Below, one piece after another: positions 40,642 through 43,371 of a DNA stretch of 64,000 nt (positions are counted from its first letter, which is position 1; each line of letters starts with the position of its first letter). Source of the stretch: Chitinophagales bacterium. GTDB taxonomy: Bacteria > Bacteroidota > Bacteroidia > Chitinophagales > Saprospiraceae. Under the pieces are notes generated by a model. That model was given only the letters and a program-made list of their open reading frames with translations. It was not told the origin of the DNA and did no database searches. The translations under genes were made by a program, and so were the position numbers. The stretch covers positions 1 to 64,000 of the forward strand of contig JAFLBP010000025.1 of NCBI GenBank assembly GCA_017303875.1, given 5' to 3'.

Positions 40642-40733
40642 GATTTGTATAATTTGGTGATCTGCAAATGTACGGAAAAATCGCATTGCCGGAGCGGGTA
40701 GCAACGATAAACGATAAGTGATGAACGATGAAT

Positions 40734-40927
40734 GGGCTTGTCATGCTGAATGGCATGACAAGCCCGCTCATCGTTACAAAAGTTGCCACGAATGCACGAA
40801 TGGCTTCGCGCTTGAATACACACGAAAACAGGCAAACACCAACCCATTCATCGTTACAAAAGTTGCCACGAATGCACGAATGGCTTCGCGCTTGAATACA
40901 CACGAAAACAGGCAAACACCAACCCAT
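40734..40927. repeat. Hairpin plus two tandem copies of an 80-bp repeat upstream of the first paralogue
   Basis: A perfect 12-bp inverted repeat (GGGCTTGTCATG / CATGACAAGCCC, 40,734-40,765) is followed by two near-identical 80-bp units, 40,768-40,847 and 40,848-40,927. Each starts TCATCGTTACAAAAGTTGCC and contains CACGAATGCACGAATGG. A single copy of the same unit precedes the second paralogue at 41,992-42,071. Confidence 0.95.
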
Positions 40928-40958
40928 TCATCGTTCATCACTTATGATTCATCGTTAT

Positions 40959-40966
40959 TATCTTTG
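40959..40966 (+). promoter_or_regulatory. Candidate -7 box for the first paralogue
   Basis: TATCTTTG ends 4 nt before the ATG at 40,971. The identical box and spacing recur before the second paralogue (42,103-42,110). The geometry matches that of the poly-Cys leader and suggests a leaderless or nearly leaderless mRNA. Confidence 0.65.
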
Positions 40967-40970
40967 CTGC

Positions 40971-41609
40971 ATGACACAAAAAGAACTTTTACAGCTTATT
41001 GGACAGGAACTTTTTCCCGACTGGAAAAAGATTTCTGGTTTGGGAGGTGGTTTTGTTTATCGATTATCACGTATGGATGGAATCACAGATACAGTACGTA
41101 TAGCCACATCCACTCTACGTGACGGTTTTAGTATTGGGATATGGCTGTCAGGTGATCGTACATTTAATGAAGTTGAAGACATTATGGAATTTTTTTGTAG
41201 AAAATATAATAAAACTCAACTATTTGCAACAATAAAGCTTAATGCGATTTCGCCAATGGACTGGTCTTCCACCCCCATCGAAAGCGCAGAAGACCTGACG
41301 CCAATCTACGCGCCGATGCGGGAGGTGGTGTTCGATCAGATACTGCCATTTCTGGAGCGTTTCAACACTTTAGAGGCCGTTTATGAACATGCAATGGAGA
41401 TGCACAGGATAAGAGATACAGATCTATTTGCATTATCACGATTCATACATAGTCCTGTCAACTACAGATTATTAATCTTAAAAAGATTGATTGCTGTACC
41501 GGATTTTATTGAATATGGTGAGCGAGAAGCTGAATTTTATAGAAAAGATCCACACTTTGATACTCTAGGATTCTATATTGAACTCTTCGAATACCTCAAA
41601 AAAATGTAA
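40971..41609 (+). CDS. Duplicated protein of unknown function, copy 1
   Basis: A 212-residue soluble protein I do not recognise. It begins MTQKELLQLIGQELFPDWKK and ends GFYIELFEYLKKM. The N-terminal 27 residues and the segment from IESAEDLTPIYAPMREVVFDQ (about residue 103) to the end are nearly identical to the second copy at 42,115. Residues about 28-100 differ strongly. There is no signal peptide or membrane segment. The central part is AT-rich compared with the ends. It is followed directly by a truncated fragment of the gene that follows the second copy, so the pair duplicated as a unit. An immunity-protein-like role is conceivable from the divergence pattern but unproven. Confidence 0.7.
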   Translation: MTQKELLQLIGQELFPDWKKISGLGGGFVYRLSRMDGITDTVRIATSTLRDGFSIGIWLSGDRTFNEVEDIMEFFCRKYNKTQLFATIKLNAISPMDWSSTPIESAEDLTPIYAPMREVVFDQILPFLERFNTLEAVYEHAMEMHRIRDTDLFALSRFIHSPVNYRLLILKRLIAVPDFIEYGEREAEFYRKDPHFDTLGFYIELFEYLKKM

Positions 41610-41615
41610 CCCGCC

Positions 41616-41687
41616 ATGAGTATTGTTATTTATTCGAGTGCAGTATCCTCGGGCCGGATTGCCGGGGCGGGTAGTAGCGATGAATGA
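41616..41687 (+). pseudogene. 5' fragment of the 42,760 gene at a duplication junction
   Basis: The first 17 codons (MSIVIYSSAVSSGRIAG) match the start of the intact gene at 42,760 almost base for base, including the 6 nt before the ATG. Immediately after ATTGCCGGGGC the sequence switches to GGGTAGTAGCGATGAATG, which matches 40,694 onward (GGGTAGCAACGAT). The frame then stops. This is a remnant left by a tandem duplication, not a functional gene. Confidence 0.9.
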
Positions 41688-41768
41688 TGAATGATGAATG
41701 GGCTTGTCATCCTGAGCAGAGTGTGCCTGCAGGATGCTAAACCCTGATAACTGTTCACTGCTTCCTTC

Positions 41769-41912
41769 GTCTGAACCGGGATTTGGGGATTCAGGGGGGC
41801 GCAGATTGGATTTATCGTGATCATTTGGATTGCGCTACGATGACTAATCCGGTTTATCGCAATAAAATCCAATCTGCGAAATCCCTGAATCCCCCCAAAT
41901 CCCGGTTCAGAC
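41769..41912. repeat. 144-bp palindromic element (GTCTGAACC...GGTTCAGAC)
   Basis: Inverted arms of about 45-50 nt start GTCTGAACCGGGATTTGGGG and end CCCCAAATCCCGGTTCAGAC. They contain a GCAGATTGGATTT / AAATCCAATCTGC internal match and a central segment of about 40 nt. Elements of this general form are scattered in Bacteroidota genomes. Here it lies inside a roughly 265-bp segment that interrupts the loop of the GGGCTTGTCAT hairpin in the second copy of the duplication. The surrounding gap 41,688-42,114 has no gene. Confidence 0.9.
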
Positions 41913-41991
41913 AAAAAGCGCAGGCGCTAAAGCCGCGCACCCTGCTCACCCCCGGCCAGATACTTCGCTTCGCTGAGCATGACAAGCCCGC

Positions 41992-42110
41992 TCATCGTTA
42001 CAAAAGTTGCCACGAATGCACGAATGGCTTCGCGCTTGAATACACACGAAAACAGGCAAACACCAACCCATTCATCGTTCATCACTTATCATTCATCGTT
42101 ATTATCTTTG
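41992..42110. repeat. Single 80-bp repeat and promoter box upstream of the second paralogue
   Basis: One copy of the 80-bp unit (41,992-42,071) is followed by TTCATCGTTCATCACTTATC and a TATCTTTG box at 42,103-42,110. The box ends 4 nt before the ATG, as at the first copy. Confidence 0.9.
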
Positions 42111-42114
42111 CTGC

Positions 42115-42753
42115 ATGACACAAAAAGAACTTTTACAGCTTGTCGGTCAGGAGCTATTTCCCGACTGGAAAAAGATTTCTGGTTTGGGAGGTGGTCTCAT
42201 ATATCGGAAGAAAGCATTAGAAGGAGTTGACGATATAATTATTTTTCCATCAGGAACACTAAGGGATGGACTCTACGTGGGTACTTCACTTGTTGGTGCT
42301 CGATCGTTTGATGTCGTCGAGAATATTCTGGAGAGTTTCTTTCGGAAAAAAAATCTTAATGATTTACTTATCACAATAAAATATATACTTGATGTAAAGA
42401 ACGATTGGTCATCAGTTTCCATCGAAAGCGCAGAGGACCTGACGCCAATCTACGCGCCGATGCGGGAGGTGGTGTTCGATCAGATACTGCCATTTCTGGA
42501 GCGTTTTAATACTTTAGAGGCCGTTTATGAACATGCAATGGAGATGCACAGGATAAGAGATACAGATGAGTTTGCATTATCACGCTTCATACATAGTCCT
42601 GTTGAGTACAGGTTATTGATCTTAAAAAGATTGATTGTTGCGCCTGATTTTATTGAATATGGAGAACGGTTCGCAGAGGCTTACAAGGATAACCCTCATT
42701 GGGATTCAAAAGGATTCTATATTGAACTCTTCGAATACCTCAAAAAAATGTAA
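42115..42753 (+). CDS. Duplicated protein of unknown function, copy 2
   Basis: A 212-residue soluble protein, paralogue of the gene at 40,971. Ends are conserved (MTQKELLQLVGQELFPDWKK; IESAEDLTPIYAPMREVVF to GFYIELFEYLKKM). The central region differs (LIYRKKALEGVDDIIIFPSG against VYRLSRMDGITDTVRIATST), although both keep a TLRDG motif, so they align without gaps. It overlaps no other gene and ends 6 nt before the intact partner gene at 42,760, suggesting one transcript and a functional link. Family unknown. Confidence 0.7.
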   Translation: MTQKELLQLVGQELFPDWKKISGLGGGLIYRKKALEGVDDIIIFPSGTLRDGLYVGTSLVGARSFDVVENILESFFRKKNLNDLLITIKYILDVKNDWSSVSIESAEDLTPIYAPMREVVFDQILPFLERFNTLEAVYEHAMEMHRIRDTDEFALSRFIHSPVEYRLLILKRLIVAPDFIEYGERFAEAYKDNPHWDSKGFYIELFEYLKKM

Positions 42754-42759
42754 CCCGCC

Positions 42760-43371
42760 ATGAGTATTGTTATTTATTCGAGTGCGGTATCCTCGGGCCG
42801 CATTGCCGGGGCCATAGGCAGCAAGGATGCGGCGCTGGCAGCAGCTGTCGGGCAGCAGGCTTTATACCTTGAGGCCCTGGAGCGGGATCCCGTAGGAACA
42901 CCGCAAGTGTTGGCTGCCCTGCTTGCCGGCACCCCGCCGCCACCGGCACAGCGGGAGGCATCGGCGTATATGTTCATCAGCCTTTGCCAGACCCTTCAAA
43001 CCCCCATGCCACATGCCTGGCATTGGTATCTGGGCATAGATACGGATCCAATTGCAGAATACCTGGAGGAGGATTTCGGAATCAGTGGGTTCAGTATCCG
43101 GGAACAATTTTTCAGTGCATACAGTCATCAGTGTCCGTTTGAATTACCCAATTATGGCGGTTTTCCCTTGGTGGGGTATGTGCCTGCGGCTGCCTTTCCG
43201 GCGCTTGCCGCGCAAATGGCGCATATCCGAATCAGCGAAGACGACCTGTGGGCCTTGAAACGGGAAATGGATTACCTGCGTGCGGAAGCGCACCGGCATA
43301 TCCGGGCGCTGGCGGAAAACATGACTTTTTGCGCTGAACAAGGCCTGGATTTGTTTTCATTTTGTCATTAA
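42760..43371 (+). CDS. Partner protein of the duplicated pair (possibly DUF7691-like)
   Basis: A 203-residue soluble protein starting MSIVIYSSAVSSGRIAGAIGSKDAALAAAV. The opening, with a short strand, a Gly-Ser-Lys-Asp step and an alanine-rich helix, recalls the DUF7691/DUF1877-type proteins, but I cannot confirm the family. Further features are HAWHWYLGIDTDPIAEYLEEDFGISGF and a C-terminal helical part (DDLWALKREMDYLRAEAHRHIRALAEN) that is likely a coiled segment. It lies 6 nt after the second paralogue, and a truncated copy of its start follows the first paralogue. Function is unknown. Confidence 0.7.
   Translation: MSIVIYSSAVSSGRIAGAIGSKDAALAAAVGQQALYLEALERDPVGTPQVLAALLAGTPPPPAQREASAYMFISLCQTLQTPMPHAWHWYLGIDTDPIAEYLEEDFGISGFSIREQFFSAYSHQCPFELPNYGGFPLVGYVPAAAFPALAAQMAHIRISEDDLWALKREMDYLRAEAHRHIRALAENMTFCAEQGLDLFSFCH

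What the first reader, a model, noticed from the sequence alone, without database searches (positions are those of the whole stretch)
40971..42753. Paralogues identical at both ends but strongly diverged in the middle
The first 27 and last about 110 residues are almost identical even at the DNA level, while residues 28-100 share little beyond TLRDG and framework positions. Uniform drift after duplication cannot give this. Either the middle was replaced by recombination, or gene conversion keeps the ends alike while the middle is under diversifying selection, as in immunity or recognition proteins.
Basis: partly seen in the sequence, partly recalled or inferred. Interest (0 to 1): 0.6.

Follow-up and report, generated by a model that had tools for sequence, protein, structure and literature searches.

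The report
Mosaic tandem immunity-like gene pair
Two neighbouring bacterial genes, probably antidotes to rival bacteria's toxins, share near-identical DNA at their start, centre and end but carry two very different pieces between, the footprint of a duplication combined with swapping of gene parts, as already known for other antidote genes.

Summary
X1 (40971-41609) and X2 (42115-42753) are 212-aa, 73%-identical tandem paralogues that align without gaps. Divergence is strongly mosaic, with a 1.7% and a 48% state. There are two main divergent blocks, not one: codons 28-102 and 184-200, with silent sites saturated in both, so the 'last 110 residues' are not uniformly near-identical. Silent codons also differ where the amino acid is kept (18/29 in the middle, 6/74 in the like tracts, p=4e-8), so selection on the protein alone cannot explain the pattern. 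A head-to-tail duplication junction, unique in the genome, leaves a 23-codon remnant of the next gene (DUF7691) after X1, with a 13/14-nt microhomology at the break. Best reading: duplication or stacking of two alleles, with part-gene recombination. The family is unnamed, distantly like DUF4304. Relatives lie directly behind a polymorphic-toxin gene (G059) and inside a toxin/immunity cassette array (G737), so these are probably orphan toxin-immunity genes; the main swapped block is the predicted beta-sheet. Closest precedents: tandem immunity genes esaG and tipC. No diversifying selection is demonstrated. A new member of a known kind, of modest interest.

The parts
40688..40749 (.). distal 5' flank of the duplicated unit (unit 1); its first 21 nt recur only at 41661
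   Evidence: pattern search of the whole genome: exact matches only at 40688 and 41661; 6/55 mismatches plus a 7-nt indel against the second copy
40848..40970 (.). 5' non-coding flank of X1, matched at 41992-42114 before X2 (1 difference in 123 nt)
40971..41609 (+). X1, 212-aa immunity-like protein, intact ORF
   Evidence: ORF and alignment
41052..41275 (+). divergent block 1 of X1 (codons 28-102; 112/224 nt differ from X2); predicted beta-sheet region
   Evidence: HMM segmentation, model
41276..41422 (+). central conserved tract (codons 102-151; 3/147 nt differ)
41519..41567 (+). divergent block 2 of X1 (codons 184-200; 25/49 nt differ)
41616..41687 (+). truncated remnant of the DUF7691 gene behind X1 (23 codons), running into the duplication junction at about 41657-41681
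   Evidence: sequence, junction alignment, unique 21-mer
42115..42753 (+). X2, 212-aa immunity-like protein, intact ORF
42196..42419 (+). divergent block 1 of X2
   Evidence: offset 1144
42663..42711 (+). divergent block 2 of X2
   Evidence: offset 1144
42760..43371 (+). intact DUF7691 gene downstream of X2; the same X-DUF7691 pair occurs once more in the genome (contig C56)
   Evidence: Pfam PF24740 E 3.9e-19

Best explanation
X1 and X2 are two alleles of one toxin-immunity-like gene stacked head to tail. A unit made of 5' flank, X and the start of DUF7691 was joined in front of X-DUF7691 by recombination at a 13/14-nt microhomology. The two copies then became (or already were, if the second unit came from another strain) a recombinational mosaic: a shared scaffold in three main tracts (start, centre, end) around an anciently diverged cassette (codons 28-102) and a smaller one (codons 184-200). 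Shown: the mosaic, the saturated silent divergence in the blocks, the junction and the truncated DUF7691. Inferred: that the proteins bind and neutralise polymorphic toxins; that the beta-sheet block sets toxin specificity; that they are orphan immunity genes giving protection against non-self toxins; and whether the cassette arrived by gene-part replacement after duplication or by stacking of two pre-existing alleles.
For: Mosaic with sharp edges: two-state segmentation 1.7% versus 48%. Silent sites: pS 0.82 and 0.99 in the blocks versus 0.11-0.25 elsewhere, with ML dS saturated versus 0.15. Conserved residues in the middle have changed codons (18/29 versus 6/74, p=4e-8). The junction 21-mer exists only at 40688 and 41661 in the 5.8-Mb genome, with microhomology GCATTGCCGG[A/G]GC at both parents. 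The distal flank differs by only about 11%, so the duplication is far younger than the middle's divergence, unless the flank has itself been homogenised. Other family pairs lack the alternation. Immunity role: the relative in G059 starts 4 nt before the end of the gene of an 1869-aa SprB-repeat protein whose C-terminus carries a D...ExK motif read by eye; the relative in G737 lies inside an array of short toxin cassettes, one a WHH nuclease hit at E 2.5e-10. Distant profile match to DUF4304 members (hhalign, probability 83%). Confident model (pLDDT 88) in which block 1 covers the whole beta-sheet. Precedent: esaG and tipC tandem immunity genes with conserved blocks (PMC9484751).
Against: No toxin gene stands next to X1/X2 or their C56 homologue, and the G059 toxin end has no match in this genome (an empty search, so weak). 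Only two of the other loci read have clear toxin neighbours. Nothing shows binding or expression. The donor of the divergent cassette was not found, so replacement is inferred from divergence, not from a matched source.
Confidence: 0.6

Rival explanations
1. Old duplicates with concerted evolution: the pair is ancient, the divergent blocks show its true age, and repeated gene conversion keeps the start, centre, end and flanks alike.
For: Several alternating tracts and patches, and flanks more alike than the like codons (1/123 and 2/59 nt differences), as patchy conversion would leave.
Against: The distal flank and the junction are still about 89% alike; conversion would have to have reached them too, without crossing the two blocks. 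No further copies were available to detect donors.
Confidence: 0.25
2. Diversifying selection alone drove amino-acid change in the middle after a recent duplication.
For: The divergent block is the predicted beta-sheet, a plausible binding face.
Against: Silent sites are saturated in the same blocks and conserved residues have changed codons there; selection on protein sequence does not raise silent divergence. Another family pair (G737 and G491) is not more divergent in the middle.
Confidence: 0.04
3. Assembly artefact: two strain haplotypes of a single locus were joined by the assembler at a short repeat.
For: The genome is in 61 contigs; a 4-kb contig of a Burkholderiales MAG carries 129 nt matching X2 at one end, apparently a chimeric join.
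Against: The shared 14 nt is shorter than usual assembly overlaps; the junction is followed by sequence absent from unit 1 (an insertion of about 250 nt) within one contig.
Confidence: 0.1

Closest known systems
EsaG tandem immunity genes of the Staphylococcus aureus type VII secretion system (PMC9484751)
   Same: Tandem paralogous immunity genes with three nucleotide-conserved blocks (about 55 nt at each end, about 100 nt in the centre) around variable regions; recombination between paralogues produces mosaics; variable regions proposed to set toxin specificity.
   Different: Many copies and several strains show the events directly there; here there are two copies in one genome, a different protein family, an environmental Bacteroidota-like host, and no adjacent toxin.
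TipC immunity genes of Streptococcus (PMC9484751)
   Same: Conserved 5' and 3' ends, diverged beta-sheet toxin-binding face between helical termini; recombination at the ends.
   Different: No relationship of the proteins was detected; the binding face is shown by mutagenesis there, only predicted here.
Orphan immunity gene arrays of Vibrio cholerae T6SS (PMC5361080)
   Same: Stacking of immunity genes with homologous recombination, orphan genes kept after effector loss.
   Different: Linked to T6SS clusters and shown across strains; no such cluster is seen next to X1/X2.
Homogeneous polyimmunity loci of polymorphic toxin systems (PMC3482391)
   Same: Tandem paralogous immunity genes in one orientation without a neighbouring toxin gene.
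   Different: Only two paralogues plus DUF7691, a family with no paper in the searched library.
DUF4304 (PF14137)
   Same: Collinear near full-length profile match, hhalign probability 83%, E 9.6e-6 for a single comparison.
   Different: No match by hmmscan to Pfam at E up to 1 nor in this genome by family search; relationship remote and unproven.

Membership tests
Polymorphic-toxin immunity genes | encoded directly downstream of a toxin gene or cassette | tested here: inconclusive
   met for the relative in G059 (ATGA overlap) and near-met in G737 (inside a cassette array); not met for X1, X2 and the C56 copy
Polymorphic-toxin immunity genes | protein neutralises a cognate toxin | not testable with these tools
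   needs a co-expression or binding assay
Homogeneous polyimmunity locus | tandem paralogous genes, same strand, no toxin in the operon | tested here: met
   X1, X2, DUF7691 all on + strand, no toxin ORF nearby; the immunity role itself is inferred
esaG/tipC-like recombining tandem immunity paralogues | blocks of near-identical DNA alternating with strongly diverged blocks between tandem paralogues | tested here: met
esaG/tipC-like recombining tandem immunity paralogues | variable regions of different copies cluster differently in trees | not tested
   only two close copies in the genomes searched; no further alleles found
DUF4304 (PF14137) | score above the Pfam gathering threshold | tested here: not met
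   no hit at E up to 1; G000 without a match
Diversity-generating retroelement target | adenine-directed changes with a nearby template repeat and reverse transcriptase | tested here: inconclusive
   the middle-segment search finds only the three X genes, no template copy; a reverse transcriptase was not searched for

The most novel reading that the evidence does not exclude
An unrecognised family of immunity proteins in environmental Bacteroidota, distantly related to DUF4304, whose near-identical start, centre and end act as recombination handles, so that the toxin-binding beta-sheet is exchanged as a cassette between alleles of different strains.
Probability: 0.25. Interest if true: 0.5.

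Novelty: new member of a known kind. Interest (0 to 1): 0.35.

Why it matters
It extends the part-swapping evolution described for Gram-positive type VII immunity genes to what looks like an unnamed immunity family in an environmental bacterium, and it points to the beta-sheet as the part that decides which toxin is neutralised. It also suggests DUF7691 as a companion gene whose role in these loci could be tested.

Tried and rejected
Diversifying selection as sole cause: rejected by silent sites. Dispersed repeat as source of the junction homology: the 21-mer is unique to the two sites, although a different dispersed repeat (73 matches) lies in the 5' flanks. Another copy of the X1 middle segment in the genome: none beyond X1, X2 and a weak hit in the C56 copy. 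Relatives in plasmids, phages and viral contigs: none. Pfam, NCBIfam and PADLOC for X1/X2: no hits. Solved structures: no confident fold match; the best Z is 6.4, with 4.0 for a CDI immunity protein and 4-6 for type III secretion chaperones and YbjN, all within the range the tool warns about. Folding the G059 toxin end alone gave a useless model (pLDDT 37), so its nuclease nature rests on the motif only. The ORF upstream of the G491 relative does not match the G059 toxin. The relatives in L025 and G633 gave no clear toxin context. DUF7691 loci in other genomes gave no clear toxin context either.

Full report
Observation. Two ORFs on the + strand, X1 (40971-41609) and X2 (42115-42753), encode 212-residue proteins that align without gaps at 73% identity. 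Residues 1-27, 28-101, 102-142, 143-175, 176-197 and 198-212 are 96, 41, 98, 91, 68 and 87% identical. A two-state hidden Markov segmentation of the aligned DNA from 40848 to 41668 finds a low state with 1.7% and a high state with 48% differences (log-likelihood -305 against -406 for one rate). It places high blocks at 41052-41275 (112/224) and 41519-41567 (25/49), plus short patches. The pattern is thus start, block, centre, patches, block, end, not a single middle between two uniform ends.

Silent divergence. Nei-Gojobori pS is 0.23, 0.82, 0.11, 0.25, 0.99 and 0.12 along the same segments. Maximum-likelihood dS is 0.15 for the like tracts pooled and saturated for the two blocks. Where the amino acid is the same in both copies, 18 of 29 codons differ in the middle against 6 of 74 in the like tracts (Fisher p 4e-8). 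Selection for new amino acids does not change codons of unchanged residues, so the blocks are old sequence rather than recently selected sequence. Codon-column permutation never reproduced the contrast (0/20000). Control pairs of the same family (X2 against the C56 copy, G737 against G491) are flat along the gene.

How the pair arose. X1 is followed by the first codons of DUF7691 (41616-41687, 23 codons to a stop), which then runs into sequence matching the region left of X1. The 21-mer GCCGGRGCGGGTAGYARCGAT is found, without mismatch, only at 40688 and 41661 in the whole genome. The left side of the junction equals the DUF7691 start behind X2, the right side equals the flank of X1, and both parents carry GCATTGCCGG[A/G]GC at the break. 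This is the signature of a head-to-tail duplication by short-homology recombination. The distal flank differs by 6/55 (4-22% confidence limits), the proximal 5' non-coding flank by 1/123 and the 3' flank by 2/59, all far below the saturated middle. So the middle alleles are most simply older than the duplication: either a divergent allele replaced part of one copy, or the duplication joined units from two strains carrying different alleles. Homogenisation of an old pair remains possible (rival 1).

What the genes are. No Pfam, NCBIfam or PADLOC family matches X1/X2. The genome has one more copy, on contig C56, 32% identical and again followed by DUF7691. Relatives are rare: G059 is the only other matching genome among 100 relatives, and larger samples of the family and order add a handful. 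In G059 the relative overlaps by ATGA the end of an 1869-aa protein with SprB repeats (PF13573) whose C-terminus carries a D...ExK pattern typical of PD-(D/E)xK nucleases (read by eye). In G737 it lies in an array of short ORFs with a shared start (MxDKVERVKAWE or similar) and different C-terminal parts, one a WHH/colicin-DNase match. This layout is that of polymorphic toxin and immunity cassettes (PMC3482391). A profile of the family aligns nearly end to end with DUF4304 members (probability 83%), although Pfam's own threshold is not met. The AlphaFold2 model (pLDDT 88) has an N-terminal alpha/beta part and a C-terminal helical part; block 1 covers the beta-sheet (25 of 46 strand residues differ against 14 of 109 helical ones). 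Fold searches gave no confident match.

Comparison. Garrett and colleagues (PMC9484751) describe esaG immunity genes with three near-identical DNA blocks, one central and two terminal, through which tandem paralogues recombine, and tipC genes with like ends and a divergent beta-sheet that binds the toxin. X1/X2 match that anatomy closely. Kirchberger and colleagues (PMC5361080) report stacking of immunity genes with frequent homologous recombination. The case is therefore a new member of a known kind in an unnamed family, with the immunity role inferred from two relatives.

Limits. Two copies in one genome cannot show the direction of transfer; no donor was found; no toxin is adjacent in this genome; and the tandem arrangement rests on one assembly.

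Noticed in passing
window 40753-40935 and 41977-42079: A dispersed repeat (GTTACAAAAGTTGCCACGAATGCACGAATGG...) stands before both X genes, tandemly doubled (80 nt) before X1; about 73 related matches in the genome. A similar stretch lies beside the C56 X-DUF7691 pair (L003:745-815).
   Followed up: partly
window 41716-41974: An insertion of about 250 nt with inverted ends (41766-41788 / 41893-41915, 96% complementary) splits the hairpin GGGCTTGTCAT...ATGACAAGCCC in the second unit.
   Followed up: partly
window 41271-41360: The central like tract has GC about 0.58, while the rest of the gene and the relatives are AT-rich (90-nt windows 0.22-0.47); origin unexplained.
   Followed up: no
L006:3925-4054: The end of a Burkholderiales MAG contig (JAFLDI010000353.1) carries about 129 nt matching X2, breaking into a MutM/Fpg-like gene: probably a chimeric contig.
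   Followed up: partly
L015:1635-9222: A contig of G737 holds at least four toxin-like cassettes with a shared N-terminus (MxDKVERVKAWE or similar) and different C-terminal ends, several followed by beta-propeller-like candidate immunity genes.
   Followed up: no
window 40959-40966 and 42103-42110: TATCTTTG, like the Bacteroidota -7 element TAnnTTTG, lies 4 nt before both start codons, so the messages may be leaderless (read by eye).
   Followed up: no
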